64,000 bases of DNA, from positions 1 through 64,000 of the forward strand of contig NZ_JAERUC010000012.1 of NCBI RefSeq assembly GCF_016745505.1. The letters run 5' to 3'. A model generated the notes under the pieces. It was not told the DNA's origin. It made no database searches and saw only the letters and a program-made list of their open reading frames with translations. The position numbers were made by a program, and so were the translations under genes. Below, one piece after another: positions 41,655 to 62,700 of the stretch. The first letter of the stretch is position 1. Every line of letters starts with the position of its first letter. Source of the DNA: Streptomyces silvae (GTDB lineage: Bacteria; Actinomycetota; Actinomycetes; Streptomycetales; Streptomycetaceae).

Positions 41655-41694
41655 GGGCCCGTCCCCCTCGACTCGAATGCACAGACGCTGGCGA

Positions 41695-43086: not shown

Positions 43087-43108
43087 TCTGCGCCCCCGAA
43101 CCAGAAAA

Positions 43109-43129: not shown

Positions 43130-43244
43130 GACCCGCCCCGCCGGGTAGCACGGGGAGGGGCAGACACTCAACGTAGTGCTCAACTAAGCACTGGCGCAGA
43201 GAAGATGTCGCAAAGTCACCCGGTCTGAAGCCCGTGCCTCGGCG

Positions 43245-46164: not shown

Positions 46165-46601
46165 TGGGCCCCGCAACGTCTGCAGTAGTCGTGACCGCGT
46201 GTGAAATGCAGCAGAGCATCGGCTCCGGATTCGCAGTCGCCTTCACCCCGGACGAGTGCCGCGTCTCAGACATGCGCAAGATCACTGCGGCCTACCTAAA
46301 ACTTTGGCGAGTACCGGAGTCGACCGCCGAGAACGTGATCCTCGCGGTGTCGGAACTCGTGACCAACGGCATCAGGCACGGACACGGCGACGTAGGGCTG
46401 AAAGCCGTCTGCGCCGACGGCGGACTCCGGATCGAGGTCACGGACGGCAACCCGAACCCGGCCCAGCTCGCCCAGGCGGAAGACGACGACCTGTCCGGCC
46501 GCGGCCTCTTCCTCGTCGCAGTCCTCGCCCACAACTGGGGAGTCAGCGACGACGGCCACACCACGTGGTGCGTCTTCCGCCTCTCCTCGGGGAGGAACTG
46601 A
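46161..46601 (+). CDS. Anti-sigma-factor-like HATPase (RsbW type)
   Basis: 146 aa. The HATPase N-box is clear (LAVSELVTNGIRHGHG), followed by IEVTDGNPNPAQ and the G-box GRGLFLVAVLAHNWGV. This kinase-like ATP-binding fold in Streptomyces controls sigma factors or antibiotic genes by binding partner proteins. It is coupled to both neighbours (ATGA, TGATG). Confidence 0.85.
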   Translation: MMGPATSAVVVTACEMQQSIGSGFAVAFTPDECRVSDMRKITAAYLKLWRVPESTAENVILAVSELVTNGIRHGHGDVGLKAVCADGGLRIEVTDGNPNPAQLAQAEDDDLSGRGLFLVAVLAHNWGVSDDGHTTWCVFRLSSGRN

Positions 46602-47020
46602 TGACCGCCCTGATGTACGAAAGCACTGCACCATTACCCGTCGCAGCATTCGCCAACGACGAGGAGACAGCCAGCCGAGTCGACCTCGGCCTGCGCCGCT
46701 TCCTCGCCTCCGACGCGGTCACCGTCGCCCTGTACGACGACCTGGAGACCGTCCTCGGCGAGAACGCTGCGCGCCTCTCCCCTGAGGACAGCGCGGTTAT
46801 CTCGGCCCGGCTGAGGGACGTGGCCCCGACGCTCAATGATGTGGTGGCGCGCCTGCTGAAGACCTACCCATCGGAGATGGACGACGTCATGGCCCGAAGC
46901 AGCGAGTTCCCCGGCCCGGAGGGTGCCCACGGGCACCTGGTGCGCTTCGCCAGCTCGATCCTCACCGTCCTCGACCTGATGGGCGAACTCGCCGTGCTGA
47001 GGGAGGTCGACCCCTCATGA
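46601..47020 (+). CDS. Small helical hypothetical protein (DUF6415-like layout)
   Basis: 139 aa, starting at an ATG overlapping the previous stop. Predominantly helical, with TVALYDDLETVLGENAARLSPEDS and a conserved-looking HLVRFASSILTVLDLMGEL end. Proteins of this layout accompany HATPase genes in Streptomyces natural-product loci. No direct function is known. Confidence 0.6.
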   Translation: MTALMYESTAPLPVAAFANDEETASRVDLGLRRFLASDAVTVALYDDLETVLGENAARLSPEDSAVISARLRDVAPTLNDVVARLLKTYPSEMDDVMARSSEFPGPEGAHGHLVRFASSILTVLDLMGELAVLREVDPS

Positions 47021-47322
47021 CGCATTCCCCCACCCCAGACGTCGGGCTGCTTCCCCCTGCGGCCCGACTCCCCGCCCGGCGCTGGGAAAACACGGCTCCA
47101 CACGTCCCCCGACGGGAGCCGCAGCGCCCCAGCGCTGGGCGGAACACCCTCCGCATCACCCTCGCTGCGATTCTCTGCGCGCTCATATCCGCTGGACTGC
47201 TTCGCTCCCCTCGCCGTCGGCCAGACCCCGCCATACACGACTTGGTAGCCGCTGATGAGGCGCGGTTCGTTGAGCTGTGCCTCCATATCGCTCGTACCCG
47301 CCAGAGAGGAGTACAGCAGTGA
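47017..47322 (+). CDS. Small hypothetical protein with one hydrophobic segment
   Basis: 101 aa, overlapping the previous stop (ATGA). A Pro/Arg-rich start, then a short hydrophobic segment (LRITLAAILCALISAGLL). No known family. It links to the next gene through a GTGA overlap, so it is part of the operon. Confidence 0.55.
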   Translation: MTHSPTPDVGLLPPAARLPARRWENTAPHVPRREPQRPSAGRNTLRITLAAILCALISAGLLRSPRRRPDPAIHDLVAADEARFVELCLHIARTRQRGVQQ

Positions 47323-47780
47323 CAACGATCGCGAGGATCACCCTCGCCCCCAGGGAACGACAGATCATCGAGGGTCTGCGCGATGGCAGCACCATCGCTG
47401 TCGTCGCCCACGGCCTCAAGATCCGGGAGGGCACGGCAGCCGGCTACCTCAAGTTGGCCAAGCGGAAGCTGCACGGAGTGAGCGATAACGCCACCGCTAT
47501 TGCCGTCGGCTACGCCACCGAAGCCATCGACCGCCCGGAGCTGCTCGCCCCAGAAGGGCTGTACCTGCCCCTTGCGCAGCGTCAACTCATCCCGTTCATC
47601 GCGAGGGGAATGCGCTCCGCGCAGATGGCCACCGAGCTGAAGCGGCCCGTCAACATCGTTCGCCGAGACGGGCGGGACCTGATGACCAACCTCGGATCCA
47701 AGAACCCCGCTCACATCGTCACGCGGGCGTGGCAGTGCCAGATCCTCACGGCAGATCAGGTGATCTCATGGCTCCGCTGA
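47319..47780 (+). CDS. Double LuxR-type HTH protein
   Basis: 153 aa from the GTG at 47319 with AGAGAGGA upstream. Two LuxR-like HTH segments are visible: LAPRERQIIEGLRDGSTIAV with LKIREGTAAGYLKLAKRKL, and LPLAQRQLIPFIARGMRSAQ with RDLMTNLGSKNPAHIV. No sensor domain is fused. It is probably a transcription factor for the adjacent regulatory genes or lanthipeptide cluster. Confidence 0.75.
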   Translation: MTTIARITLAPRERQIIEGLRDGSTIAVVAHGLKIREGTAAGYLKLAKRKLHGVSDNATAIAVGYATEAIDRPELLAPEGLYLPLAQRQLIPFIARGMRSAQMATELKRPVNIVRRDGRDLMTNLGSKNPAHIVTRAWQCQILTADQVISWLR

Positions 47781-48337
47781 TTCCACTACGTCATGAGATC
47801 CCTCGCAGCACGGGGCGGTGCCAGAGTCTGCGGACCGTAGCACGTAGCGCACAAATCGCTCTGTCCGCCTTGAACCTGCCGTCACCGAGATCTGAAAGTC
47901 CGCGGATTTCTGTGGGGTCGGGCCAAGCACATGAGCACACGACTTCACTCACCTCCCCGGTTCCCGACAAGGTCGAGGTCCTGGCCCTCGTGGAAGCAGC
48001 GCTGTCCTGGGACGTAGACAGCCCCGCTCTCCCTACGGTCAAGAACGCCCTCGCCATGGCACAGCAGTTCACGGACTTCGGCCGGATCGTCGCCGACGAC
48101 TTGGAAGCCAAGCTGCTCGGCCTCCCCGCGGACTTCTGCATCGGTGCACGGGCAACTCTTGGCGAGGCCAGCAGGCGCCTCTACCTAAGACCTCTCGCCC
48201 AGACCGCTGCCCCACGGTCAGCCGCCCACCGCGCACAGAATCTTGCTCGGCTCGTCCAGGCGCTGAGCCGCGCGTTCGGTGAGGTCTACCGCGAGCAAGT
48301 CCGCTCCCGCTCAGTCCAGGCACCACAACGGGAGTGA
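47768..48337 (+). CDS. DUF6415-like protein
   Basis: 189 aa from the ATG at 47768, overlapping the previous gene. The C-terminal pattern CIGARATLGEASRRLYL followed by ARLVQALSRAFGEVY fits the DUF6415 family of Streptomyces natural-product loci. No biochemical role is established. It ends the small-gene operon; a hairpin overlaps its stop. Confidence 0.6.
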   Translation: MAPLIPLRHEIPRSTGRCQSLRTVARSAQIALSALNLPSPRSESPRISVGSGQAHEHTTSLTSPVPDKVEVLALVEAALSWDVDSPALPTVKNALAMAQQFTDFGRIVADDLEAKLLGLPADFCIGARATLGEASRRLYLRPLAQTAAPRSAAHRAQNLARLVQALSRAFGEVYREQVRSRSVQAPQRE

Positions 48338-48355
48338 CCCCCAAGGACTGGGGTC
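48336..48355. terminator. Hairpin at the end of the small-gene operon
   Basis: GACCCC (48336-48341) pairs with GGGGTC (48350-48355) around an 8-base loop, immediately at the stop codon. A modest terminator. Confidence 0.45.
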
Positions 48356-48783
48356 TCCTCTCGGTCGCGTGGACCTTCGTGCCCGTGCACGAGGACCCGA
48401 GAGCGTCACGAGGAGGCGGCGCCGGGAGAGCGCGCCCCGGTCGCGTTCCGTGGGGGAGCTTACGGCCAGCCCTCTCGACCGCTCGCCAGTCGCAACGACA
48501 GGTGAGTGCACGACCCGGCTCCCAGCCTGAAAGGACGGCTCGGTGCCGGAGGAAGCGTGTGGGGAGGAGCCGTCTCCCTGTGGTCCCTCCCCGCACCGAA
48601 ATGATCAAGAACGAGAGAGAGAAGGGTAATGCCGCCTCATCTGGAACCCATATCGAGCCACTTCACGCGCTATCCGCGCCCGCGGCGCGTAGTCAGCCTC
48701 GGAAACCCGAGCCCTGACTAGCGTCCTTGCCGCAGCGCCATGCCGGCACCACGCCCCAGCCCTTCGACGAATCAGGTCATCGC
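48338..48783. other. Leader region of the lanthipeptide cluster
   Basis: No convincing gene: the plus-strand frame 48334-48717 lacks a domain and ribosome site. Besides the hairpin at its left end it holds a second one (48557-48597). The promoter for the methyltransferase gene probably lies in the last 150 bp, but I see no clear -10/-35. Confidence 0.45.
48557..48597. terminator. Hairpin upstream of the lanthipeptide cluster
   Basis: GTGTGGGGAGG pairs with CCTCCCCGCAC, one internal mismatch, separated by a long loop. It may insulate the cluster from the operon before it. Confidence 0.45.
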
Positions 48784-49989
48784 ATGACTACCACTGACAC
48801 CTCCGCCGTCCGCGATCCCGACGCACTGCGTGAGGACATGCTGCGCGCCCTGCATGAGCAAGACGGGATCAAGTCCGAGGCCGTCGCCGCCGCGTTCGCA
48901 GCGGTGCCGAGGCATCTGTTCGCCCCCGACGCACCGCCGGAGCTTGCCTACGATCTGCACAAGACCGTGCCGGTCAAGACGGACGAGAACGGTCTGAGCC
49001 TCAGCGTCATGTCTACGGCCCACCTCCAGGCCGTCATGCTGGAACAGGCCGAGGTCCGGCCCGGCATGAATGTCCTGGAAGTCGGGTCCGGTGGCGTCAA
49101 CGCCGCCTATCTGCAGGAGCTTGTCGGGAGTACGGGAAACGTCACCACCGTCGACATCGACAGCGACGTCATCGACCGGGCCCGCAAGTGCCTGGATACC
49201 ACCGGATACACCCAGGTCAAGACGGTAGTGGCTGATGGAGAGAACGGGGTTCCTGAGGGTGCCCCGTACGACCGGATCATCGTGACCGTCGAAGCCTGGG
49301 ACATCCCGCCGTCCTGGGTGGGCGGCCTGGCCGAGCAGGGACGGATCGTCGTGCCCCTCAAGGTCCGAGGCACCACTCGCTCGATCGCCTTCGACCGTGA
49401 GGGCAACAACCTGGTCAGCCGCTCCTACAGCTTGGCGCACTTCGTGCCCATGCAGGGCGAAGGCGCCGCCGCGGAGCGCAAGGTCATGCTGCGGGAAGGC
49501 GTCGCGTTGCAGACGGACGACGACCGTGTGCCCCTGGAGCGCGAAGCGCTCAGCGCGGCCCTGAGCATGCCCCGGCTGGAGCGTTGGTCCGGCGCTGCGT
49601 ATGACCTGCCCGACGAGCTGGAACTGTTTCTCACCCTGAACCTGCCGAGCCCGGCCCGGCTCCACGCTTCCGAGGACATCGTCGCGAGCGGGCTCGTGGA
49701 GGCGTCCGCACTCAAGGGCGTGCCCGCCCTGGTGAGCGGGGACAGCATCGCCTACCGCACCCGCCGCGAGAACAGCGAGACCGACGGGTTCGAGAGCGGC
49801 GTGATCGCCCACGGCCCGCAGGCCGAAGCGCTCGCCGAGGTGTACGCGGACCTGCTCCGCCGCTGGGCGCAGAACTACCGCCGGCGGGGAGCTGCGACGT
49901 TCCGCTACCTGCCGGGCCCTGCTCCCGCCCCCCTGCCCAAGGGCGCCGCACTGCGACGCCACGGCGTCGTCACGGCGACCTGGGCCTAA
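48784..49989 (+). CDS. FxLD-system methyltransferase (protein isoaspartyl O-methyltransferase-like)
   Basis: 401 aa from the ATG at 48784; the frame is open upstream to 48727. The N-terminal half is a PCMT-type SAM-dependent methyltransferase: VLEVGSGGVNAAYLQELVG (motif I), VTTVDIDSDVIDRARK, and the acceptor-side YDRIIVTVEAWDIP. A C-terminal extension of about 200 residues is typical of the methyltransferase, FxLD system group found with lanthipeptides. Related enzymes methylate an aspartate in the core peptide to form aspartimide or isoaspartate. It directly precedes the precursor gene. Confidence 0.9.
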   Translation: MTTTDTSAVRDPDALREDMLRALHEQDGIKSEAVAAAFAAVPRHLFAPDAPPELAYDLHKTVPVKTDENGLSLSVMSTAHLQAVMLEQAEVRPGMNVLEVGSGGVNAAYLQELVGSTGNVTTVDIDSDVIDRARKCLDTTGYTQVKTVVADGENGVPEGAPYDRIIVTVEAWDIPPSWVGGLAEQGRIVVPLKVRGTTRSIAFDREGNNLVSRSYSLAHFVPMQGEGAAAERKVMLREGVALQTDDDRVPLEREALSAALSMPRLERWSGAAYDLPDELELFLTLNLPSPARLHASEDIVASGLVEASALKGVPALVSGDSIAYRTRRENSETDGFESGVIAHGPQAEALAEVYADLLRRWAQNYRRRGAATFRYLPGPAPAPLPKGAALRRHGVVTATWA

Positions 49990-50052
49990 GACTCCGGGGC
50001 TCTCGGGCCTCGGGACCGTGCACTACCAGTCAACTGCCCAAGGAGGCAACGC

Positions 50053-50244
50053 ATGACCGTACAGATGGAGCGCCCGCTGACGCCCGCGCAGTCGGTCGTC
50101 ACCCCGAAGTCGTCCGGTGAGACGGCGGACTGGGAGCTCGACATCACCATCGTCGAAGGTGGCCCCGCCGCAGACCAGCTCATCCGCCTGACGGGCGACG
50201 GCTGCAACTCGACGTGCGCCACCGCGTGCACGAGCTGCCCGTAA
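50053..50244 (+). CDS. lanA: FxLD-family lanthipeptide precursor
   Basis: 63 aa with AAGGAGG 7 bp upstream. The leader carries DWELDITIVEGG, the FxLD-box position but with Trp in place of Phe. The core reads LTGDGCNSTCATACTSCP with four Cys and several Ser/Thr, fit for dehydration and lanthionine rings. A Gly-Asp-Gly lies just before the first Cys, a site where the neighbouring isoaspartyl-type methyltransferase could act. It is followed by a full set of class I modification genes. Confidence 0.92.
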   Translation: MTVQMERPLTPAQSVVTPKSSGETADWELDITIVEGGPAADQLIRLTGDGCNSTCATACTSCP

Positions 50245-50247
50245 GCA

Positions 50248-50271
50248 GCACCGACCCCCTTATTACGGTGC
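50248..50271. terminator. Weak hairpin between precursor and lanB
   Basis: GCACCG and CGGTGC pair around a 12-base loop that contains a pyrimidine run. It could act as a partial terminator, giving more precursor than enzyme mRNA, a common device in RiPP operons. Confidence 0.45.
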
Positions 50272-50324
50272 CCGGCCACGCCTGCACGGGCGAGGTCGGG
50301 CACTGCGCGGCCACAGGAGGGCAC

Positions 50325-53225
50325 ATGTACCGGCACGTCGATGCAGCGCTGATCCGAGCCGCTGCAGGAAGCCCTGAACCAGCCGACTGGCCGACCCTGG
50401 TCGGCACGAATGCAGGACCCGCATCATGGCGAGCGTGGCTTCACCAGACCTGGCAAAACCTCGAGTTCGCTGCCGCCGTCAACGCTGCCAGCCCGGACCT
50501 CGCGCGTCAGGTCGAACAGATCGGCGCCGACCACCCGCTGCCGGACTCCGAAGTACGCCGCACAGTGCTCGCTGTCCTGCGCTACCTGCTGCGCGCCCGC
50601 ACCCGCGCCACGCCGTTTGGTCTGTTCGCTGGAGTCGCGACCGCGCGAATAGATGCCGTGGGTTCGCTGCGCACCGGTTCCGCGCACCACCACACGGCCA
50701 GAGCAGACGCTGAACACAGCACGGCCCTCGTCGAACGCTTCGAGCAGCACCCCGCGCTGCAACCGCATCTGATGCTGCTCACCTCCACCCTCGCCGTCGA
50801 ACAGGACGGCCACGTGGTGATCGAGCACCGCCCCAGCGGAAAGCGCGACGTCGGCCCAGAGCACGTACGAGTACGACTGACCGGGCCCGTACGTGGAGCC
50901 CTGGACGGTGCACGCGCTCCGATCCGGTGGAGCGACCTCGCTGCGAAGCTCGCCACCGACTTCCCCGGCGCCCCCGCCGTGGCCATCAGCAAGCTCCTCG
51001 CGGGCTTGGTCGAGCAGCAGGTTCTCCTCACCGACCTGCGCCCGTCGATGACGACGCCTGACCCCCTCGCCGGGCTGACCGAGCACGTGCATCATCTGCC
51101 CGTCCACGAGCGGATCGAAGTCCATGCGGCGCCCATGACGGCGCTCGATCTCCGCCTGGACTGGGACCTGGCACTTCCCGAAAGCGTGCCCCACGAAGTG
51201 GCTGCGGCAGCGAGGGCGCTGACCCGGCTCGCACCACGAGCTGCGCTGACCGGCTGGACCGAATGGCACGCCCGGTTCCTCGACCGGTACGGGCCGCGCG
51301 CAGTCGTCCCCGTTCTGGACGCCATCGACGCCCTCGGGTACCCGCCCGGCTACCTCGGAGCCAACATCAAGCCGGAGTTCTCACCACTGCCCGATCGGGA
51401 CGCCCGCCTCATCAAGCTCGCCCAGGCCGCCGCCGCGCAGGGCAATGTCGAAGTCACCCTCGATGACGCCGAGCTGGAGGACCTGGCCACCACCGATCCC
51501 GGGCGTCCCGTCCAGCCCAGCACCGAGATGACCGTACGCATCGACGCCGAAGACATCTCCGCCCTGCAACGTGGCGAGTTCGCCCTGCACGTCGTGGGAG
51601 TGGCCCGGTCGGCGGGAGCGACCGCCGGGCGCTTTCTGCACCTGCTGCCCGCCGAAGACCGCCGTCGCATGTCCGACACGTACGCCGGACTGCCGGCAGT
51701 ACACCGCGGCGCGCTCGTCGCGCAGATCAGCGCCACCCCCCTGTCCGCGCGAGCCCAGAACGTCGCGCGTGCACCCCGAGTGGCCGACTTCGTGATCTCG
51801 CTGGGTGAGTACCAGAGCCAGGACACCACCATCATTCCCGTCACGGACCTGGCCGTCACTGCCGACACCCAACAAATCCACCTCGTCTCGCTCTCCCGGC
51901 GCCGGCCGGTACACACCCTGTTGCTGAACGCCGTAGACCTGGGCCTGCACTCTCACCCGCTCACCCGATTCCTGGCCGAGGCGCCCGTGGCACTGACGGT
52001 CCCCTGTACCGGATTCCTGTGGGGCACCGCCGCCTCGAACCTGCCGTTCCTGCCCGCGCTGCGCTACGGCCGCACGATCCTGTCCCCGGCCCGCTGGCGC
52101 CTCACCCGCGATGACCTTCCCGCCGGGCCGGCGTCATGGCCGCAGTGGGGAGAGGCCCTGGCCCGATGGTGCCGAGACGTTAACCTTCCCGAGCGGGTCT
52201 ACCTGGCCGAAGCAGACCAGGGCCTGGCCCTAGACCTGACGGAGCCCTCCCACCGGGCGCTCCTGCGGGCTCAGTTAGACCGCGACGGCACGGCGATCCT
52301 GCACCCCGCTCCCCGCGCCGTAGACCTGGGCTGGACCGGTGGCCGGGCCCACGAGGCTGTGATCCCGCTGGTCGCGCACCAGAAACGGGCCCCAGTGCGA
52401 CCGACAGCCCACGTCGTCAACCGTGAGCACGGGCACCTCCCCGGCAGCGGGAACCGTCTCTATCTTCAGCTGCATGGACGCCGTGACCGGCAAGATCCCA
52501 TCCTGACCCGGCACCTGCCAACGCTGCTCAGCGAGCTGGGTGACCCGCTCTGCTGGTTCATCCGCTATCCCGACCCTGACGAACACCTCCGCCTTCGCCT
52601 GACCTGCGCGCCTGGCACCCTGGGCACGGCCTTCGAGCACATCGGCGCTTGGACAGAACAACTTCGTCGCCACGATCTGATCACCCACACCAGCGTGGAG
52701 ACCTACCACCCGGAGACCGCACGGTTCGGGGGACCCGCGACCCTCGACGCGGCCGAGTCGTACTTCGCCGCCGATTCCGCCGCCGCGCTCGCCCAGCTCA
52801 CGGCCGAAGGAGCGAAGGGCGCACCGGACGCCCATGCGATGACCGCCGCGAGCATGGTGGACATCGCCACCGGCCTGCTCGGCGACCAGTCCACGGCGAT
52901 GCACTGGCTCATCGAGCACACCCGCACCGCGCCGGACCCGCCGCCCCGTACCCTCTACCGCCAAGCCGTCGACCTGGTGCACACGCACCCCGCGGGCTTG
53001 GACAAGCAGACCGCCGTGGCCTGGTCCAAGCGGCGGAGAGCACTGGCCGACTATGCCCACGTGCTCGCGGACTGCAACGAAGACCCCGGCGGCCTCCTGC
53101 CTGACCTGCTGCACCTCCACCACGTACGGATGTGCGGGCCCGGCCTGCCGGAAGAGATCACGCACCTTCACCTGGCCAGGGCCGCCGCCCTGAGCTGGAG
53201 GGCACGAGTAGGGAGAACACCGTGA
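50325..53225 (+). CDS. lanB: LanB lantibiotic dehydratase
   Basis: 966 aa from the ATG at 50325 (AGGAGGG upstream; start MYRHVDAALIRAA is typical), although the frame is open further upstream. The large N-terminal glutamylation domain includes RYLLRARTRATPFGLF and PRVADFVISLGEY. The C-terminal elimination (SpaB_C) domain begins near LYLQLHGRRDRQDPIL and includes PLCWFIRYPDPDEHLRLRL. Full-length LanB dehydrates core Ser/Thr using glutamyl-tRNA. Codon 651 is TTA (52275-52277), so bldA control is likely. The lanC start overlaps its stop (GTGA). Confidence 0.93.
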   Translation: MYRHVDAALIRAAAGSPEPADWPTLVGTNAGPASWRAWLHQTWQNLEFAAAVNAASPDLARQVEQIGADHPLPDSEVRRTVLAVLRYLLRARTRATPFGLFAGVATARIDAVGSLRTGSAHHHTARADAEHSTALVERFEQHPALQPHLMLLTSTLAVEQDGHVVIEHRPSGKRDVGPEHVRVRLTGPVRGALDGARAPIRWSDLAAKLATDFPGAPAVAISKLLAGLVEQQVLLTDLRPSMTTPDPLAGLTEHVHHLPVHERIEVHAAPMTALDLRLDWDLALPESVPHEVAAAARALTRLAPRAALTGWTEWHARFLDRYGPRAVVPVLDAIDALGYPPGYLGANIKPEFSPLPDRDARLIKLAQAAAAQGNVEVTLDDAELEDLATTDPGRPVQPSTEMTVRIDAEDISALQRGEFALHVVGVARSAGATAGRFLHLLPAEDRRRMSDTYAGLPAVHRGALVAQISATPLSARAQNVARAPRVADFVISLGEYQSQDTTIIPVTDLAVTADTQQIHLVSLSRRRPVHTLLLNAVDLGLHSHPLTRFLAEAPVALTVPCTGFLWGTAASNLPFLPALRYGRTILSPARWRLTRDDLPAGPASWPQWGEALARWCRDVNLPERVYLAEADQGLALDLTEPSHRALLRAQLDRDGTAILHPAPRAVDLGWTGGRAHEAVIPLVAHQKRAPVRPTAHVVNREHGHLPGSGNRLYLQLHGRRDRQDPILTRHLPTLLSELGDPLCWFIRYPDPDEHLRLRLTCAPGTLGTAFEHIGAWTEQLRRHDLITHTSVETYHPETARFGGPATLDAAESYFAADSAAALAQLTAEGAKGAPDAHAMTAASMVDIATGLLGDQSTAMHWLIEHTRTAPDPPPRTLYRQAVDLVHTHPAGLDKQTAVAWSKRRRALADYAHVLADCNEDPGGLLPDLLHLHHVRMCGPGLPEEITHLHLARAAALSWRARVGRTP

Positions 53226-54466
53226 CTACGACAGCCCACGCCCCCGTCGCGCTGTCGACCGCCGACAAACTGGCCGACGCATTGGCCGACCCGACCAGCA
53301 TCTGGCCGGGCGATCGCCCCAGCGGTGGCCGCGCCTGGCCCCAGTCGCTCGCCGGAGGTGCGTCAGGCATCGCCCTGCTGCACATCGAGCGGGCCCGTAC
53401 CGGACACGGCGACTGGGACACCGCGCACGCCTGGCTGGCTGCGGCTGTGGACGGCGCGATCAGTGCGGCGGCCAACGCGAACCTGTACTTCGGCGCTCCC
53501 GCCCTGGCGTTTATCACGCACCGCGCGGCGAGCGCATCAAGCCGCTACCTGCGGCTCCTGGAGCGCCTGGACGCAGCCACCCTCGCCGTCACCCGCTCCC
53601 GTCTCAGCGCCGCCCACCAACGCATCGACCGCGGTGAACGTCCTCCGATGGAGGAGTTCGACCTGATCCAGGGTCTTTCCGGGCTTGGCGCTTACCACCT
53701 CAGCCGTCACCCTCACCACGAGATCACCCGCGACACCCTCAGCTACCTGGTGCGGCTCACCGAGCCCCTGTCCGAACCGACCGGGCTGCCGCCCTGGTGG
53801 ATGAACGTCGCGCCCACCGGCGCACCCCATCCCGACTATCCGGGCGGCCACGGCAACTTCGGCCTCGCCCACGGCATCGGCTCAACCCTCGCCGTGCTCT
53901 CGCAGGCTCTGCTCTCCGGAGTGCCCGTGCCTGGCATGGCCAACGCTGTCCAGCGAATCTGCGCCTGGACCGACCATTGGCGGCAAGGTGACGACGCCCA
54001 GCCCTGGTGGCCCGGCCAGGTCACCGAGCAGCAAGTAGCCGACCGCCGAGTCCACTCCAGTCTTCGCCCGCGGCCCTCCTGGTGCTATGGGGTCAGCGGC
54101 ACCGCCCGCGCCCAGCAACTAGCCGGACTCGCTCTGGGAGACGCAGATCGGGTGCAGGCCGCCGAGCGCGCGATCCTTTCGGCGCTGCGCGACCCAGTGC
54201 AACAGGGCCAACTGCCGGAGATCGGGCTGTGCCATGGGATGGCCGGTCTTCTTCAGGCCGCGTGGCGGATAGGTGCCGACACGGGCAACCCCGAGGTCAC
54301 CGCCGAACTTCCTTATCTGGCTGCCCGGTTGATCCGCGCACTCGACGACGGACCACATGATCCGGAACTCCTCGACGGAGCCGCCGGTGCAGCGCTGGCC
54401 CTGCACACCCTCGGCACAGGCCGCGCACCGGCCCCGTACTGGGACACCTTCCTCGCCCTGGCGTGA
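53222..54466 (+). CDS. lanC: LanC-like lanthionine cyclase
   Basis: 414 aa from the GTG overlapping the lanB stop. LanC zinc ligands are present: Cys288 in SWCYGVSG, and Cys337 and His338 in GLCHGMAG. The HGNFGLAHGIGS motif is upstream, as in the family. LanC adds Cys thiols to dehydroalanine or dehydrobutyrine to form (methyl)lanthionine rings. Confidence 0.94.
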   Translation: MTTTAHAPVALSTADKLADALADPTSIWPGDRPSGGRAWPQSLAGGASGIALLHIERARTGHGDWDTAHAWLAAAVDGAISAAANANLYFGAPALAFITHRAASASSRYLRLLERLDAATLAVTRSRLSAAHQRIDRGERPPMEEFDLIQGLSGLGAYHLSRHPHHEITRDTLSYLVRLTEPLSEPTGLPPWWMNVAPTGAPHPDYPGGHGNFGLAHGIGSTLAVLSQALLSGVPVPGMANAVQRICAWTDHWRQGDDAQPWWPGQVTEQQVADRRVHSSLRPRPSWCYGVSGTARAQQLAGLALGDADRVQAAERAILSALRDPVQQGQLPEIGLCHGMAGLLQAAWRIGADTGNPEVTAELPYLAARLIRALDDGPHDPELLDGAAGAALALHTLGTGRAPAPYWDTFLALA

Positions 54467-54485
54467 CCACCCCGGAGGACCTTTC

Positions 54486-55316
54486 ATGAGCACACCTCAC
54501 TGGTGCCAGGCCAACGTCGCCTTCTCCCACTGGGAACAAGCCGAGGCCACGGCCATATCCCGCATTACCCCACTCCTGCGCGCGGCCGAGCGCGATGGCG
54601 CACTCGGCACATGGTTCATCATCCGTAAGCACCCCTGCTGGCGCATCCGCTATCAGAGCACCGCCACCGGACGCGACCACATGAGCACAGTTCTCGACGG
54701 CCTGACCGCTGAGGGGCACATCAAGAGCTGGACAGAGATCATCTACGAGCCTGAACACCACGCGTTCGGCGGCGACGAGGCCATGGCCTCCGCCCATCGC
54801 TTCTTTCACCGCGACACCCTCGGCCTCGTCGGGTTCCTGGAAAGCGACACCGGCCGACACCGCCGAGAGACCTCCCTGATGCTGTGCGGGCTCATGATGC
54901 GCTCCGCCCAACTGGACTGGTACGAGCAGGGCGACGTCTGGGCCCGCGTCGCCGCACACCGGCCGCAGTCTCCTCAGGCCGCCTCACTCCAGGGTGGACA
55001 GCTCCACGACGCCGTACACCGTCTGCTGCGCGTCGACCCACAGTACGCGATGCAGCCGGGCGGGCCGCTGGCCCATGCAGCTGAATGGGCTCGCGCATAC
55101 GTGGAGGTCGGCAGCGAACTGGCCTGCCTCAACGAGACCGGGCACCTCCACCGAGGGCTACGAGATGTGCTGGCTCACCACGTGTTCTTCGCTTGGAACC
55201 GACTCGGCCTGCCCTACACCACGCAGGCGACCCTCACGGCCGCCGCGAGAACCGTGATCTTCGGACAGGACCCAGCCATCGAGAGGAGCGCCGCAAACCA
55301 TGTGGAAGGCTCCTGA
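54486..55316 (+). CDS. Stand-alone SpaB_C-like (thiopeptide-type bacteriocin) protein
   Basis: 276 aa with GGAGGACC upstream. The start matches SpaB_C domains: WCQANVAFSHWEQAEATAIS, LGTWFIIRKHPCWRIRYQS and WTEIIYEPEHHAFGG. Because lanB already has an elimination domain, this second copy may have another job, such as acting on a different residue or as a cyclase, as small LanB-like proteins do in thiopeptide pathways. It overlaps the next gene. Confidence 0.85.
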   Translation: MSTPHWCQANVAFSHWEQAEATAISRITPLLRAAERDGALGTWFIIRKHPCWRIRYQSTATGRDHMSTVLDGLTAEGHIKSWTEIIYEPEHHAFGGDEAMASAHRFFHRDTLGLVGFLESDTGRHRRETSLMLCGLMMRSAQLDWYEQGDVWARVAAHRPQSPQAASLQGGQLHDAVHRLLRVDPQYAMQPGGPLAHAAEWARAYVEVGSELACLNETGHLHRGLRDVLAHHVFFAWNRLGLPYTTQATLTAAARTVIFGQDPAIERSAANHVEGS

Positions 55317-56421
55317 CACCCTCGCGAGACGATTCCCGCTCGTCGCCCGCCCACGCCCTTCGTGCCTTCCACTACCCCAGCGCATCCATGCGCTGTCCCT
55401 CCTCGCCGACTCCGCGACAGCTCACGGCGACCTCAGCACAGCGTCCACCGTCTACAACCAAGCTGCCTTGATCGCCTCCGACGTCGGCGACACGGAGGCG
55501 GCCCGTACCTGGTGCCGGCAGCACGCCGCCGTCTACCTGGGCGCCACCCCTCTCGAAGCGGCAGACGCGATCCGGGCCCTGGAACCCGTCGTCAACCTCG
55601 TTCGCCTCCAACTCAGGACCGGCAACGCGGACGCGGGACACCAACAGCTCGAATCTCTCTTCAACTCGGTCGCTGCTGACCGGTCCGCCCGCATCGACGG
55701 AGTGACCGTTCCCGCAAGCCTCGTGTCCACAGCACAGGACCGCCGCGAAGTCACCACCTGGTTGTGGGCTGTTGTACTGGCCGACGGGACCCGCTCCCTG
55801 ACCAGTGCCGGCCGCTGGGGCGAAGCACTGTCGCACGTTCAACGGCACCGAGGTCTCGGTCGCCGAATGCTCGACGGGCGCCAAGTAGCGGTCATTGCAG
55901 CGCTTTTGAGTGGAGAAACAACGCACGTCAAGTACCTCCTGGCCAACACGGAACCGGGCGACATCTGGGAAGCCGCTGTCACGGACTGCCTGACGGTCCT
56001 CTGCCTCCGCAGCAGTGACCTGGGGTGGCGGCGCCCCCTCCACAACCTCGTCGACACCTACCTCGCACTGCCTGAGCCGGAGGGACTGACGTCCTTCCGG
56101 TCTCGGCTTGGGTTGGCCGTACTGGATCTGGTCAGCTCACCAGAGGACTCCGCTGCCAGGAAGATCGTGACGGACCTCTGCCGCCGCGCCGCAAGGGCCG
56201 AGGACGGCTACGCCGCACGGGATGCGCTCTCCCACCCATGGACCCGCGAGTTGGCCACGGATGACGAGAGGAAGCAGTGCCTTCGGCTTCTCAGCTCCTG
56301 CGCTCTCCGAGCTGGCCAGCTACCCGCCCGGGAAGGGGTCCAGCTCACCGAGGCGGTGCGCCAAGGCGATCGAACAATCCGCGCGCGGGTTGGGCAGGCG
56401 ACGGCATCGGAAGCCATTTGA
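55300..56421 (+). CDS. Helical-repeat (TPR-like) protein in lanthipeptide cluster
   Basis: 373 aa from the ATG at 55300, overlapping the previous gene by 17 bp. Predominantly helical with TPR-like segments (SLLADSATAHGDLSTASTVY, SAGRWGEALSHVQRHRGLGR). No HTH. Similar proteins are present in FxLD clusters without known function; a role as adaptor or immunity-linked factor is possible. Confidence 0.7.
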   Translation: MWKAPDTLARRFPLVARPRPSCLPLPQRIHALSLLADSATAHGDLSTASTVYNQAALIASDVGDTEAARTWCRQHAAVYLGATPLEAADAIRALEPVVNLVRLQLRTGNADAGHQQLESLFNSVAADRSARIDGVTVPASLVSTAQDRREVTTWLWAVVLADGTRSLTSAGRWGEALSHVQRHRGLGRRMLDGRQVAVIAALLSGETTHVKYLLANTEPGDIWEAAVTDCLTVLCLRSSDLGWRRPLHNLVDTYLALPEPEGLTSFRSRLGLAVLDLVSSPEDSAARKIVTDLCRRAARAEDGYAARDALSHPWTRELATDDERKQCLRLLSSCALRAGQLPAREGVQLTEAVRQGDRTIRARVGQATASEAI

Positions 56422-56773
56422 TGACCGAGCACGCACCCGGCGGGCGTCTTGACCGCCGAGGGGCAGGTGATTGCCGCAATCACGATGCCCGGAGGCACCT
56501 CCCTCTCTCTAATCCAGCGCGTTTCATGCCCTCGCCCCTCGCGCTGGACAGTCCTCGAAGCCTCATCCGCCACAGGCGTTTCGGGCGTCGGCGATTCGGC
56601 CAACTCCCCGATGCCGCGCGCGGCTTCGTAGCGGCACGCACACGCGCACTCCGTTGCTGCATAAGGGCGCCGACGCGTCCGGAATCGAGCGCGTTCGATT
56701 CCTCGTCAGCGTCGTTATTCCGTGCACTGCCGGGCCATCCAGGCGCGGCATCAATCCCCACAGGAGGGACCAG
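56422..56773. other. Gap between helical-repeat gene and ABC transporter
   Basis: No supported gene and no second precursor peptide. It holds the inverted repeat at 56681-56702, and the ABC ribosome site GGAGGGACC at the right end. Otherwise nothing is recognisable. Confidence 0.45.
56681..56702. promoter_or_regulatory. 8-bp inverted repeat upstream of the ABC transporter
   Basis: GGAATCGA - GCGCGT - TCGATTCC, perfect 8-bp arms about 70 bp before the start. It may be an operator or a small hairpin. It mimics a tRNA T-arm, but no tRNA is present. Confidence 0.5.
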
Positions 56774-58663
56774 GTGACTGTGACTGCCGCCTCGACCGAA
56801 TCCCCCGAGACGCCGCCCCCTCCACCCCCGGCCACCATCACCTACAACGGCAAGCACGGCCAGAATCCGCTGGCAGACGCCAGTTTCAGCGCTATGTGCC
56901 GCCGCCTCCCATCGGTCCTGGGACGCACCGCGCGAATGGCGTGGGCCGTCGACAGAGTGGCCGCCCTACTCCTCCTCGCCTGCCAGTTCCTTACCGGCAT
57001 CGCGGCCGCTGTCGTCCTCGCGTTCACCGCACAGGCCATGACCCACATCCTCGGAAACGACGAGGTATCCGAACGCCTACACGACGCCTTGCCCGCCCTG
57101 ATCGTCGTCACGGCCGCTGCCGGCGTCGGCCGTATCAGCGGAGCCCTGTCCTCTTACGCCAACGGCCGGATCACTCCGCGGCTCATGACCGAGGCAGACG
57201 TCGCTCTGGTAGCCGCCGTGTGCCGAGTCGAATCTTCCGCCTACGGCCAAGACGGCTTCAAGGACAGGCAGGAAGCCGCAGAGATCGGTGTAACTCGCAC
57301 CTCGATGATGGTCCAGGACGCCCAGCGCTTCATGTCCGCGCTGATTCGGATGATCGCTGCCAGTTCCGTCATCACGGCTCTCCACCCCCTGATGCTGCCT
57401 CTGCTGCTCCTGGCCGTCATTCCGGCGGGCGCCGGGGCGGTCCTGTCCGCGCGCGTCGACTACGAGACCCACTACCTCAACGTCGGCGACCGTAACGTTC
57501 GCGCCCTCATGCGATCGTGGGCCACCTTCTCCCGCCACGGAGACGAAGTCCGGGCCAACGGCATGACCGGCTACCTCATCTACTGGTACCGCGCTCTCTC
57601 GGACCGCATCGACCAACGCACGCTCACCACCGCTCCCCGCCTGCTGCGCATCACTCTCGCCACGAGCGCCCTCGGCGGAGTCTTCCTGTGCGGCACATGG
57701 GCCACTCTCGCGTGGCTCGCCGCCACCGGTCGCGTGGGACTACCCGTCGCCGCTACCGCCGTCATCGCCGTGCAGACCACCCTCGCCGCCCTCAGCAACT
57801 TCGTGATCTACGGAGCCGCGCTGTTCCACACCTCGCTCTACCTGGCCGACATGCGCGCCTTCCTCGACATGGCCGAAGAATTGGCGCCCAAGCGCGGCGA
57901 GCTCATGATCCCAGAAGTCATCGAAGAGATCAGGATCGACGAGGCCGTCTATCAGTACCCCGGGAAGGACGAACCCGCTGTTGCAGGGGTGTCCCTCTCC
58001 CTGCGCCGCGGCGAAATCCTGGCCGTCGTCGGCGAGAACGGCTCGGGCAAGTCGACTCTGACCAAGCTGATCACCGGCATTCTGCTCCCCGACAAGGGCC
58101 GCGTCCTCTGGGACGACGTTGACTTGGCCCAAGCGGACCCCGACGCCGTGTGGAACCGGACGGCGCTCGTCCCGCAGAACTTTGCCTGCTGGCCCCTGCG
58201 AGTGCGCGAGAACATCACCCTCGGCCAGCCCCGCACCTTCAACGACGACGCGGTGTGGGACGTCGTCGACGCTGTGGGGATGCGCGACACCGTGCAGAAG
58301 CTGCCCCAACAGCTGGACACGCTCCTTACCAGGGAGATGTTCGGTGGCGCTGAACTGTCCGGCGGTCAGTGGCAGCGCCTTGTGTGCGGGCGAGCCCTGT
58401 ACCGCCAGACGCCGCTCCTGATCTTGGACGAGCCGACATCTCAGATGGACGCGCGGGGGGAGCACGCTCTCTTCCTTGAGATCAAGAGGATCGCTGCCGG
58501 CCGCATGACGATCGTCGTCACCCATCAACTCGAAAACACACGTCTCGCCGACCGAGTGCTTGTAATGGACAAAGGCCGCGTCATCGAACACGGGACATAT
58601 GACGACCTCGTGAGCGGCGGCGGATTGTTCGCTGAACTCGTCGCGCTGGCCAAGGATCGGTGA
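56774..58663 (+). CDS. ABC transporter (fused membrane and ATPase domains), likely lanthipeptide exporter
   Basis: 629 aa from the GTG at 56774 with GGAGGGACC upstream. Six helices fill about 60-400. The ATPase part has Walker A VGENGSGKSTL, a Q-loop (VPQNF), signature LSGGQWQR, Walker B LLILDEPT and the switch His in VVTHQLE. No Cys-protease (C39) domain is seen, so leader removal is done elsewhere. Position in the cluster suggests export or self-protection. Confidence 0.92.
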   Translation: MTVTAASTESPETPPPPPPATITYNGKHGQNPLADASFSAMCRRLPSVLGRTARMAWAVDRVAALLLLACQFLTGIAAAVVLAFTAQAMTHILGNDEVSERLHDALPALIVVTAAAGVGRISGALSSYANGRITPRLMTEADVALVAAVCRVESSAYGQDGFKDRQEAAEIGVTRTSMMVQDAQRFMSALIRMIAASSVITALHPLMLPLLLLAVIPAGAGAVLSARVDYETHYLNVGDRNVRALMRSWATFSRHGDEVRANGMTGYLIYWYRALSDRIDQRTLTTAPRLLRITLATSALGGVFLCGTWATLAWLAATGRVGLPVAATAVIAVQTTLAALSNFVIYGAALFHTSLYLADMRAFLDMAEELAPKRGELMIPEVIEEIRIDEAVYQYPGKDEPAVAGVSLSLRRGEILAVVGENGSGKSTLTKLITGILLPDKGRVLWDDVDLAQADPDAVWNRTALVPQNFACWPLRVRENITLGQPRTFNDDAVWDVVDAVGMRDTVQKLPQQLDTLLTREMFGGAELSGGQWQRLVCGRALYRQTPLLILDEPTSQMDARGEHALFLEIKRIAAGRMTIVVTHQLENTRLADRVLVMDKGRVIEHGTYDDLVSGGGLFAELVALAKDR

Positions 58664-58728
58664 CTCCCTATACCGCATAGGTGCGTCCACGCCCACCCAT
58701 CACCACAAGCAAAGAGCTACCACCGCCC

Positions 58729-59088
58729 ATGCAGAACGACACGTGGAACATCATTGACGCCTTGGCCGCCCGCTTCACCGCACACGACACGGAGCGGGGC
58801 CTGTCGCTGGAGGAGCAGTGGACGCTCCAAGTACTGAAGATTTCCGAGGAGACCGGGGAAGCGGCCCAGGCCGTCATGGGCGCCCGCGGGTTCAATCCAC
58901 GAAAGGGCAACAGCCACACCTGGCAGGACGCCCAGGATGAAATCGCGGACGTAGTCATCACCGGCATGGTCTCCCTGGCCCGAATGCGGCCCGACGACGC
59001 CCTCGGCTTCCTCCACGAGCAACTTGTGGCCAAGGCCGCAAAGTTTCTGCCCGCAGAACAGACTGACCCCGCCCGCGCGTCGTCGTGA
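58729..59088 (+). CDS. MazG-like nucleotide pyrophosphohydrolase
   Basis: 119 aa. LKISEETGEAAQAVMGARG and DAQDEIADVVITGMVSLA hold the EExxE and ExxD metal-binding motifs of MazG-like proteins. They hydrolyse abnormal or excess NTPs. A stand-alone actinobacterial type, perhaps a house-cleaning partner of the cargo. Confidence 0.85.
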   Translation: MQNDTWNIIDALAARFTAHDTERGLSLEEQWTLQVLKISEETGEAAQAVMGARGFNPRKGNSHTWQDAQDEIADVVITGMVSLARMRPDDALGFLHEQLVAKAAKFLPAEQTDPARASS

Positions 59089-59136
59089 TGTAGCAGAGTC
59101 CCGACTGACCAGCACTCGTCGAAAGGAACCGACCAG

Positions 59137-59745
59137 GTGACGCCCCCAAGCGATCCCTCGAAACCGTGGGCTGAATGGCATCAGGAAGGCATGGGACCTA
59201 CTCAGGAAGCCTTCCTTGAACTGGTCCGCCAGACCAAGGACACCAAGCAGTACTGCCAGAACATCGTCTGGGGAAATCTCCAGACTCCGGACTACGCTCG
59301 GGCCATCCTGCGCCTGGTGGTCGACTTCCACGGTTTCCCGGACGACATCGAAGACGGTGTGGCCGCCCGCACCGCCCGAGCCTCGCTTATCGGAACGGGA
59401 GAGCGCACGTATCACGTACTCCTCGGCGAAGGGGCCCTCAGGCGCAACATCGGAGGTGCCGAAGTCATGCGTGGCCAACTTGCACGGCTACTTGCAGCAT
59501 TCGCCCTCCCCGGGCTCACGCTGGGCGTGATCCCTGACCGCGCCCAGCTCGACATCTACCCCGGCAACAGCTTCGGGATCTTCGACGGTGCACGCGTCGA
59601 GATCGAGAACTTCGCCGACTCTCCAACCACCACCGACCCCGAGCATGTGGCGACCTACGGCAGGGCTTTCGACCTCTTGGCGCGCGGCGCGGTGTACGGA
59701 GGGGAGGCCAGCGCCATGGTCCAGAGCGAACTGCGTGCTCTGTAG
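59137..59745 (+). CDS. DUF5753 protein lacking an HTH
   Basis: 202 aa from the GTG at 59137 with GAAAGGA upstream. DUF5753 is normally the C-terminal part of Streptomyces XRE regulators, with the pattern GNLQTPDYARAIL near the start and TLGVIPDRAQL later. Here the N-terminal HTH is absent: there is only a short leading segment. It may act as a binding partner or decoy of an XRE protein. Confidence 0.82.
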   Translation: MTPPSDPSKPWAEWHQEGMGPTQEAFLELVRQTKDTKQYCQNIVWGNLQTPDYARAILRLVVDFHGFPDDIEDGVAARTARASLIGTGERTYHVLLGEGALRRNIGGAEVMRGQLARLLAAFALPGLTLGVIPDRAQLDIYPGNSFGIFDGARVEIENFADSPTTTDPEHVATYGRAFDLLARGAVYGGEASAMVQSELRAL

Positions 59746-59786
59746 AGCGCCTACTCAGATGGACTGGAAGACGCACCTAGCGAAGT

Positions 59787-62700
59787 TCACGGCGTGAGCT
59801 CATCTGGCGCATCGTCGCACGTTTGCGGTACATCGTCGTGGTGCAGCTGTGGGGCATAGAGGGCTAGGGTCAGGGGCTCGGATGCAGGTGTGGTCGTCAG
59901 TTCGTCGGCGTTGAGCTGAATGCCCATCTGAGCCCTTGAGGCCAACTCATTACGCAGGCCCGTCACCCGGTAGGTAGCGCCGTGAGCAGTGCTTCGAGCT
60001 TTGGTCGCCTCGGTCCGAAGGCGCTTGGCTGCTGCGTTGTCCTCCCCCGTGGCACGGTGTAGGAGTACGGCCTTTTCCTGCTGTGACATGTTCGCTTCGG
60101 TGAGCACGGGCTCGTGTTCGCCGGTGGGCCCGGCCATCTGGACAGCAGCCTGGAGTCGCGCGTTGATCTTCTCCAGTTTCCGACCGGTCTCTTCGTGGGT
60201 ACGAAGCAGTCCTTCGCGATCTGCCTCGACCGCAGCTCGATCGTCCCCACGGAGTGTCAGACGCCCGAAGCGCCCCGTCGCGGCCAGCTGCTGTTCGAGA
60301 CCTTCGATACGGGCCTGTGTGCCGTTCAGTCGGGCGGTGCGTTCAGCAATCGTGCTGTCCAGCGCTCGGAATTCGCGGATGGCTGCGGCCCGTTCGGCAA
60401 CGTCCTGATGGCGGCGGTGGAGTGCAAGCGAGTTCGGGCCTGATCCGGCAGCAGCCTCCCGTTCGGCACGGTCCGCAGCGGCCTCCGCCTTCTCGGCCGC
60501 CGTGCTGGTGGCGCGAGCCGCCGTCGCCGCCTTGCGCACAGCGTCGCGCAGGGCTGAGTTACTGAGGTGGGCGTACGGACGATCAGCCGTCGGCGCCGCT
60601 TCAGGAAGAGTAGTCAGCGCCTCCCGCCGCCCGGCCGTGGCCGGGGTAGATCGGACCTCGGGCTCCGCGCCCTCTCGGAGGGCGTCCGCGTCGTGTAGTT
60701 CTCCCGCACCGGGGCCGCGCGGGATCGGCAGATCCGCTACCGCCTGGCGAACATGGGCGGGCACCGCGTTCTTGGGGAGTTCGGAGAGGATCATGCGTTC
60801 CTCGGTGCCGTTCTCGATCTCGCGGATGAGGCCGGCGACGGCGCGGTCAAGCTGTTCCTGCTCGGTGAGTGCGTCGCCGCTGCGGGCGCGGTCGGCGTCG
60901 GTTTCGTAGACGGAGAGCGGCAGGAAGAGGTGGGACTCCTTCTTGTCGCGACTCATCATCGTGTAGAGCGCGTTCGCCTGGGCTCCGGGACCGTAGACCA
61001 GGGTCTCTTGCACGCTGAGCCCCTGCGACTTATGGCCGGTGATCGCGTATCCGAGGCTGAGTCCGCCCTGTGCGATGTAGTCGGCCTCGACCCATTCGGC
61101 AACGTCACGGTGGCCGTCGGCGGTCTTCTCCCGCCACTCGATCAACACCCGGCGTTCCTCGTCCACGGCCCGCACGATTCCGCGGAGGCCGTTCAGCACG
61201 TCTTCGTTCTCGCCTCGGGTCCGCTTGCCCCGGTAGTCGTTGATCCGAAGGAGGACCTGGTCACCGACGGACAGCATCAGCTCACCGCCGCCGGGCAGCG
61301 CGTAGGCGTGCTCGGGACCGGTGAGGTCGCCGTTCTCCTTCCGCAGGGCACGAGCCCCGACGTTCAGTTCCTCCACCACCTCGTTGGTGGCGGCGAGCAT
61401 GAGGAGCTGCTGCACGGCGGTGTGGTCGTCGGTGTGCGCGGCGCGCTTGTCGGCCCAGATGGTGAGCATCGCGGCGAGGGTGGCGTCCTTGTCCGCGAGG
61501 GCGTGCACGCGGCCGGTCCCGGCGAAGGTGCGGAGTGCTTCCACGCGGTTGTCGTCGCGCCACAGCTCCAGGGCCCGCCGCTCGATCGCGTCCTTCTGCC
61601 GGAAATTCTCGTTGAGACTGAGTCCGCCCACGATGTGGTGCACGGCGGCGAAGGAACCACCGATGCCGGGCGAGTGCAACTGCTTCGGGTCACCGATGCC
61701 GACGACCTTCGTGCCGGTCATCGCTGCGTGGCTGAGGAGTTCGGCGATGTCGCGGTCATCGCACATGGCGGCTTCGTCCACGACTAGCACGTCGACGCCG
61801 GTGAGGCCGGGGCCGCCGTTGCGGATGCCGGTGAGCCAGGACGCGAGGGTGCGCGACTCGATGCCTGCCTCGGCCTTCAGGTTCGCGGCGGCGACGGCGG
61901 CCGTGCTCAAGCCGGCGATGACGAGACCGTGGGCCTCCCATGCCTGCCGGGCGGTGTCCATGATCGTGGTTTTGCCCGCTCCGGCGATGCCCACGACTAC
62001 GTCGATTCCGTGCCCGGCCGTGAGCAGCCGTTCGAGGACGGCGCGCTGTTCGCCGGAGAACGCGAAGGTGCCACCGTGCTGGGCCTCGACGGTGGACAAG
62101 GTCATGTCGACCGTGTCGCGGCTGACGACGGCGGCCTGCGTGCCGAGCCGGTTCGTTGCCTCGGAGACGATCAGCGCTTCCGCCGCCACGATGTCCGCCG
62201 TGGTGTACCGGTCGGCGTGCGTGAAGTGTTGAGCGCCCTTCGGATTCAGCTGAACCACGTATCCGGCGTGACGGAGGACGGAGGTGGTGAGTTGTTCGGC
62301 TTCCTCGGCGTTCGCGACTCCGTACGGGAGGACGTCCAGCACGGCGGCGATGGCGGCGGCGTGGGTGAACTCCTTGGAGTGGCTGGTCAGGCCGGTCTTA
62401 GGGTCGAAGACCTGGGCGCACAGCTCGTCCAGAGAGGGGTTCTGGTCCGCTCGGTCCCGCTCCATCGCGCTCGCTGCGATGGCGTCGGGGTCGTCACCGA
62501 CAGCACGCCCCTCGGCCTGCCAGTAGGCGCGAAGGACGTCGTCCCCGACTCCGGCGGCCTCGCCGTTCTTCGCGGCCTTGGATGCGGTGGAGGCGGCGGT
62601 ACGCTCGCGGGTCGTGGCGCTGTCGTAGTCGATTCCCAGCTTCGTCAGCAGAGCCCGGACCTGGCTGTCGCGCTTGCTGAACAGGCGGATCGTCGCCTCG

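What the first reader, a model, noticed from the sequence alone, without database searches (positions are those of the whole stretch)
48784..58663. FxLD-class lanthipeptide cluster carried as cargo on a conjugative element
Methyltransferase (FxLD type), precursor, full LanB, LanC, a stand-alone SpaB_C-like protein, a helical-repeat protein and an ABC exporter sit between a type IV-like transfer operon and the relaxase gene. This places a complete, probably uncharacterised RiPP pathway on transferable DNA. That it is cargo is inferred from position; the family assignment rests on motifs seen in the sequence.
Basis: partly seen in the sequence, partly recalled or inferred. Interest (0 to 1): 0.75.

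Follow-up and report, generated by a model that had tools for sequence, protein, structure and literature searches.

The report
Lanthipeptide cluster in Streptomyces mobile-element slot
A soil bacterium carries a gene set for a small modified peptide (a lanthipeptide of a family found in nearly half of sampled Streptomyces species) on DNA built to move between cells, in a cargo slot where about half of the related mobile elements also carry some version of this peptide pathway.

Summary
48784-58663 encodes an FxLD-system methyltransferase (TIGR04364), an FxLD precursor (TIGR04363; here WELD, core TGDGC), full LanB, LanC, stand-alone SpaB_C, a TPR-like protein and an ABC exporter, between a T4SS operon and a MobF relaxase. 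The chemistry is of a known kind: class I lanthipeptides with LanS_A (OlvSA-like) methyltransferases; FxLD methyltransferases pass the curated cut-off in 91 of 199 sampled Streptomyces genomes.
The cargo reading is now supported by comparison. The element belongs to a family with a conserved integrase; a distant member is a circular plasmid. Backbone DNA identity stops at 40.96 kb and resumes at 59.95 kb, bounding a slot. Of 22 named relaxase relatives with a readable slot, 11 carry an FxLD cluster (2 decayed), from about five methyltransferase lineages; others carry a thymidylate-synthase/radical-SAM cluster. The window's nearest backbone (Streptomyces sp. ISL-100) has a 40%-identical FxLD cluster in the slot and a 92%-identical one on another contig. 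So slot contents are swapped. The ABC exporter is not specific to this cluster; leader protease, immunity and product function remain unknown. No paper found describes this slot.

The parts
17644..40976 (.). Left conserved backbone of the element, including the T4SS-like operon (30798-40694); homologous DNA starts at 17644-17970 in three relatives
   Evidence: blastn 94/92/85% to ISL-100, G025, CB03234; T4SS Pfam hits
40977..59955 (.). Variable cargo slot of the element (19 kb here)
   Evidence: backbone identity stops at 40956-40993 (five relatives) and resumes at 59943-60051
46150..59744 (+). Module also found, without this T4SS backbone, on another contig of Streptomyces sp. ISL-100 (G085:C68), 86-88% nt identity
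   Evidence: blastn; dN/dS 0.07-0.32, no stops
46140..48717 (+). Upstream regulatory-type genes: HATPase_c_2 46140-46601, LuxR-type HTH 47277-47780, DUF6415 47729-48337, small ORF 48334-48717
   Evidence: Pfam (HTH and DUF6415 below gathering cut-off); co-move with the cluster
48784..49989 (+). fxlM / LanS_A-type protein-aspartate O-methyltransferase
   Evidence: TIGR04364 E 9.8e-160; PCMT relatives incl. 1dl5
50053..50244 (+). Precursor peptide, leader motif WELD (27-30), core LTGDGCNSTCATACTSCP with Asp49-Gly50-Cys51
   Evidence: TIGR04363 E 3.6e-16; compared with about 30 relatives
50325..53225 (+). Full-length LanB dehydratase (glutamylation + elimination domains), 966 aa
   Evidence: PF04738 + PF14028; nearest solved structure 5ehk
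53132..54466 (+). LanC cyclase; zinc-ligand motifs WCYG and LCHG present
   Evidence: PF05147; aligned to NisC and 8byk
54357..55316 (+). Stand-alone SpaB_C / elimination-domain-like protein (ORF from first start; true start probably later)
   Evidence: TIGR03891 172 bits; own conserved motifs RKHPxWRxR and WYEQGDVW
55300..56421 (+). All-helical TPR-like protein, frequent partner of fxlM
   Evidence: homologs in 83 of 393 genomes, many beside fxlM; low-confidence all-alpha model, generic TPR matches
56654..58663 (+). ABC exporter (permease-ATPase, no C39 peptidase match); shared with other cargo types
   Evidence: found in TS/radical-SAM slots and with other clusters, absent from other window-type FxLD clusters
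59137..59745 (+). DUF5753 protein, right end of the co-moving module
   Evidence: 89% identity on G085:C68
59787..64000 (-). MobF (TrwC-type) relaxase-helicase, continues to 64244 of contig C102
   Evidence: PF08751, NF041492; ORF 1485 aa

Best explanation
This is an FxLD-system class I lanthipeptide cluster carried as exchangeable cargo by a T4SS/MobF conjugative element of Streptomyces. LanB dehydrates Ser/Thr of the core through glutamyl-tRNA-dependent glutamylation and elimination. LanC closes thioether rings with the four cysteines. FxlM then methylates the conserved core Asp49 (TGDGC), giving an aspartimide that relaxes mostly to isoaspartate. These chemical steps are inferred from family knowledge and the OlvA/OlvSA precedent, not shown here. 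The stand-alone SpaB_C and the TPR-like protein are recurrent accessory parts of unknown step. The ABC protein probably exports some product but is shared with unrelated cargo. The cluster sits in a variable slot between the transfer operon and mobF; comparison shows that the slot's contents are replaced between elements, most simply by recombination in the conserved flanks. The recurring FxLD occupancy suggests that the peptide benefits the element or its host, most likely as an antagonist of competitors or a signal. That last step is inference.
For: Curated HMM hits for the core genes. Precursor with TxDGC motif as in about 30 relatives. LanC ligands; open frames and dN/dS 0.07-0.32 against the ISL-100 copy. 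Collinear backbone in 8 other genomes and pMDJK44.2, with different slot contents. FxLD in the slot of 11 of 22 named relaxase relatives against about 0.0008 expected per slot. MobF tree places the window in a clade of FxLD-D carriers although it carries FxLD-A. fxlM tree: slot members fall in about five lineages mixed with non-slot ones. In all 15 pairs of D-type elements, cargo dS is below MobF dS, e.g. 0.03-0.06 against 0.34. Conserved integrase at the right end of four relatives, and a related integrase on G000 contig C31, whose end matches the element. Same core on two 125-134 kb circular plasmids with a different T4SS.
Against: No att repeats were found, and the window's contig ends before the right end of the element, so its integrated state is not shown. 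Most FxLD methyltransferases in Streptomyces do not lie near a MobF relaxase (about 7 of roughly 118 within 25 kb). Transfer, expression and product are untested. No leader protease or immunity gene was recognised.
Confidence: 0.87

Rival explanations
1. The cluster is an ordinary chromosomal biosynthetic locus, and the transfer genes are neighbours by chance or remnants of a dead element.
For: FxLD clusters are common (91 of 199 genomes) and mostly not near MobF. No att repeats were found.
Against: Sharp slot boundaries at the same backbone positions in several relatives; 11 of 22 slots occupied by FxLD clusters; the T4SS, relaxase and cluster frames are intact here; circular plasmids carry the same core.
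Confidence: 0.05
2. The FxLD cluster is a fixed, ancestral part of this element family, inherited vertically and lost in some lineages, rather than exchanged cargo.
For: About half of the elements carry one, and five FxLD-D carriers cluster in the MobF tree.
Against: Slot fxlM genes fall into about five lineages interleaved with non-slot genes; the window element sits among D carriers but has an A cluster whose nearest kin is on another contig of ISL-100; cargo dS is below backbone dS in all 15 D pairs.
Confidence: 0.08
3. The peptide and the TPR-like protein form a signalling pair that controls the element's transfer, like RapI-PhrI of ICEBs1, rather than an antagonist.
For: The TPR-like protein is a frequent neighbour; RapH is among the weak structural matches. 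ICEBs1 is cited from general knowledge.
Against: Low-confidence model (mean pLDDT 64) with generic TPR matches of E above 0.007. The protein also accompanies FxLD clusters outside the element and was not found in the D-type slot clusters.
Confidence: 0.07

Closest known systems
OlvA/OlvB/OlvC/OlvSA of Streptomyces olivaceus NRRL B-3009 (class I 'lanthimiditide', LanS_A type)
   Same: LanB, LanC and PIMT-type methyltransferase with a conserved core Asp in a TxDGC motif (PMC13001092, PMC7268733)
   Different: WELD leader, distinct core, stand-alone SpaB_C plus TPR-like partner, located on a conjugative element; no product known here
Class I precursor families I 1-4 of Actinobacteria (Walker et al. 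2020, PMC7268733)
   Same: Conserved core Asp, PF01135 methyltransferase, stand-alone elimination-domain proteins already reported
   Different: That survey does not mention conjugative elements or plasmids (term search)
T4SS-dependent ICEs of Streptomyces (Choufa et al. 2022, PMC9513070)
   Same: Integrase, relaxase, coupling protein and VirB4-type genes on chromosome or plasmid
   Different: No lanthipeptide or lantibiotic cargo mentioned there; not compared by sequence
pMDJK44.2 of Streptomyces alboflavus (NZ_CP023977.1)
   Same: Collinear MobF/T4SS backbone, about 70-84% nt identity, circular 88.7 kb
   Different: Slot holds thymidylate synthase/NDK/radical SAM genes instead of FxLD
Plasmids of Streptomyces sp. 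NBC_00239 and NBC_01310
   Same: Same six-gene FxLD core in the same order, about 70% nt, on plasmids with T4SS-type genes
   Different: T4SS proteins only about 25% identical; no ABC exporter next to the cluster

Membership tests
FxLD-system lanthipeptide (NCBIfam TIGR04363/TIGR04364) | Methyltransferase scoring above TIGR04364 cut-off | tested here: met
   531.9 bits against cut-off 320
FxLD-system lanthipeptide (NCBIfam TIGR04363/TIGR04364) | Precursor scoring above TIGR04363 cut-off | tested here: met
   58.9 bits against 30
FxLD-system lanthipeptide (NCBIfam TIGR04363/TIGR04364) | Literal F-x-L-D leader motif (not required by the model; membership is set by the HMM score) | tested here: not met
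   WELD here and in L036; the curated model still accepts the peptide, so this is a point variation of the motif, not exclusion from the family
Class I lanthipeptide | LanB with both domains plus LanC with zinc ligands | tested here: met
Class I lanthipeptide | Thioether rings in the product | not testable with these tools
   needs mass spectrometry or NMR
LanS_A lanthipeptide (lanthimiditide) | Conserved core Asp in TxDGC with a PIMT-type methyltransferase | tested here: met
   TGDGC; PF01135; motif as in PMC10787088/PMC13001092
LanS_A lanthipeptide (lanthimiditide) | Aspartimide/isoAsp formed at that Asp | not testable with these tools
   inferred from OlvSA
Integrative and conjugative element (T4SS type) | Relaxase, coupling protein and VirB4-like ATPase on the element | tested here: met
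   the VirB4 assignment rests on weak Pfam AAA hits and homology to annotated relatives
Integrative and conjugative element (T4SS type) | Site-specific integrase and att repeats | tested here: inconclusive
   Integrase conserved in four relatives and a 54-56% one on G000 contig C31; no att repeat found
Integrative and conjugative element (T4SS type) | Excision and transfer | not testable with these tools
   needs PCR and mating

The most novel reading that the evidence does not exclude
FxLD lanthipeptides are selected as functional partners of these conjugative elements, so that the slot is a module through which elements exchange peptide weapons or signals that favour element-bearing cells; the TPR-like protein may be a receptor or regulator for the peptide.
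Probability: 0.2. Interest if true: 0.8.

Novelty: new member of a known kind. Interest (0 to 1): 0.5.

Why it matters
FxLD/LanS_A lanthipeptides are among the most abundant class I lanthipeptides of Actinobacteria (PMC7268733), yet the function of the aspartimide/isoaspartate modification is unknown (PMC13001092, PMC10787088). Showing that one family of conjugative elements carries such clusters in an exchange slot, with several independent lineages and recent swaps, gives a natural system for testing what the peptide does: compare isogenic element-bearing and element-free strains, or elements that differ only in the slot.

Tried and rejected
Circular closure of contig C102: no terminal overlap. 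att direct repeats at the element ends in G000, ISL-100, CB03234 and G352: only chance-length matches. tRNA integration site: no normal tRNA near the ends. Treating the ABC exporter as cluster-specific: rejected, it occurs with other cargo and is missing from other window-type clusters. Function for the helical protein: no sequence match in the PDB, model of low confidence with only generic TPR matches. Homologs of the helical protein in viral contigs: none confirmed. One genus search with the relaxase failed on the server and was replaced by the genome-contig scan.

Full report
Observation. The methyltransferase passes TIGR04364 (532 bits, cut-off 320) and the 63-residue precursor passes TIGR04363 (59 bits, cut-off 30). 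LanB has both Lant_dehydr domains, and LanC matches PF05147 with the WCYG and LCHG zinc motifs aligned to NisC. A second elimination-domain protein matches TIGR03891 at 172 bits. The 373-residue helical protein matches no family and no PDB sequence. The leader motif is WELD; about 30 related precursors share an FxLD-type leader and a core T-x-D-[GN]-C motif (the script selected on this motif, so precursors lacking it would have been missed). Upstream lie a coupling protein, a VirB4-like ATPase and an SLT/NlpC hydrolase. Downstream lies a MobF relaxase, whose ORF runs to 64244 of contig C102, 244 bp beyond the window.

The family is common. 91 of 199 Streptomyces genomes carry an FxLD methyltransferase above the curated cut-off, and annotated fxlM genes occur on many Streptomyces plasmids. 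The chemistry has a precedent. Walker et al. [quoted passage not shown] OlvSA methylates such an Asp after LanB and LanC have acted, giving aspartimide and then isoAsp (PMC13001092). The biological function is not known.

The element. The window is 1-64000 of a 72,869-bp contig without terminal overlap. The 36620-38056 protein has eight relatives at 87-98% identity among 393 Streptomyces genomes; the other listed matches are near 48% over part of the protein, which I take as a housekeeping paralog. Those eight loci share the T4SS operon in order, then a variable region, then mobF on the minus strand; most also share the genes beyond mobF. Circular pMDJK44.2 of S. alboflavus is collinear as well. 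Backbone DNA identity stops at 40956-40993 of the window in five relatives and resumes at 59943-60051, giving a 19-kb slot here. A tyrosine integrase, 78-90% identical among four relatives, sits at the far right end. G000 contig C31 ends in DNA 91% identical to that arm and carries an integrase 54-56% identical to theirs, so the element probably continues there. I found no att repeats.

Slot contents. A scan of named genomes with the relaxase gave 25 loci, of which 22 have about 10 kb of readable slot. Eleven carry an FxLD cluster: nine intact-looking (MUM 2J, S. indicus, ISL-87, G-G2, UNOC14_S4, ISL-100, CB03234, H39-S7, S. jumonjinensis) and two decayed (S. caeruleatus, S. philanthi). G025 and G352, from the other genome set, add two more. 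At the density about 0.0008 would be expected per slot, and the binomial chance computed for 10 of 21 is of order 1e-26. These loci are related, so that number overstates independence. The trees address this. On the MobF tree the cargo labels need at least 10-12 changes. On the methyltransferase tree, slot members fall in about five lineages mixed with non-slot ones; both are quick trees with several open forks and some long branches. A second recurring content is thymidylate synthase, NDK, radical SAM, exonuclease, ATPase and aldo/keto reductase (pMDJK44.2, SID10853, S. monomycini in part); G023's slot looks the same from its ORF starts, but I did not search it with those proteins.

Swapping. 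The window's relaxase falls in a starred clade whose other five members all carry the D-type FxLD cluster, only about 40% identical at fxlM. The nearest kin of the window's cluster, 92% at fxlM and 95% at the ABC protein, lies on a different contig of ISL-100, whose own element holds a D-type cluster. That second copy spans window 46150-59744 and ends with the DUF5753 gene; its contig carries an FtsK/SpoIIIE-type gene and an integrase-like gene and may be another mobile replicon. Between these two copies dN/dS is 0.07-0.32 with no stops. Among the six D-type elements, fxlM and LanB dS are below MobF dS in all 15 pairs, most clearly ISL-100 against H39-S7 (0.03 and 0.06 against 0.34). Gene-specific codon bias could shift such values, but not easily by that much.

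Limits on the general claim. Around the FxLD loci of 91 genomes, about 7 of roughly 118 lie within 25 kb of a TrwC-type relaxase on the same contig, against about 0.4 expected (my count; Poisson). This is an enrichment, but most FxLD clusters are not beside a MobF relaxase. The six-gene core without the exporter also sits on two plasmids with a distant T4SS. The window genome's second FxLD cluster lies beside a T4SS of that second kind.

Mechanism. Shown: gene content, intact frames, purifying selection, slot boundaries, cargo discordance. Inferred from family knowledge: dehydration by LanB, cyclisation by LanC, Asp49 methylation and imide formation by FxlM. Unknown: the step of the stand-alone SpaB_C, the TPR-like protein, leader removal, immunity and product function. 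The AlphaFold model of the helical protein is weak (pLDDT 64) with generic TPR matches.

Verdict. A new member of a known lanthipeptide kind, in an exchange slot of a T4SS/MobF element family. I found no description of this slot in the papers searched; the library holds open-licence papers only, so absence there is weak evidence of novelty.

Noticed in passing
G000:C95:4218-19483 (L028): The window genome has a second, divergent FxLD-type cluster, about 3.4 kb from a T4SS operon of the NBC_00239-plasmid kind (TraG 56%, VirB4 72%, SCO6880 65%), with a TrwC relaxase 24 kb from its fxlM.
   Followed up: partly
NZ_CP023977.1:47614-53399 (L026), L115, L111: A second recurring slot cargo: thymidylate synthase, NDK, radical SAM, 3'-5' exonuclease, ATPase, aldo/keto reductase, perhaps a modified-nucleoside pathway; in L115 with the same ABC exporter as the window.
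   Followed up: partly
window 50053-50244: Precursor leader motif is W-E-L-D instead of F-x-L-D; the closest relative (L036) has the same Trp.
   Followed up: partly
window 56654-58663: ABC exporter has relatives beside unrelated biosynthetic genes (e.g. the NRPS-containing region of NBC_01244, L142), suggesting a promiscuous export gene.
   Followed up: partly
window 3112-17258: Left of the element: MFS transporters, PLP enzyme, DUF305, DUF4396 and an alkylmercury lyase (MerB) gene; chromosomal flank or further accessory DNA not decided.
   Followed up: no
G006:C9:268501-270950: Two integrase-family ORFs lie inside the slot of the CB03234 element, upstream of its fxlM, suggesting a nested insertion.
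   Followed up: no
L025:1659-11041: Plasmid pMDJK44.2 carries an annotated type I-E CRISPR-Cas system outside the slot.
   Followed up: no
G085:C78 right arm (reversed extended region 63784-64241 and 71330-71790): A repeat of about 460 bp occurs twice in the right arm of the elements and probably explains the contig break between C102 and C31 in the window genome.
   Followed up: no
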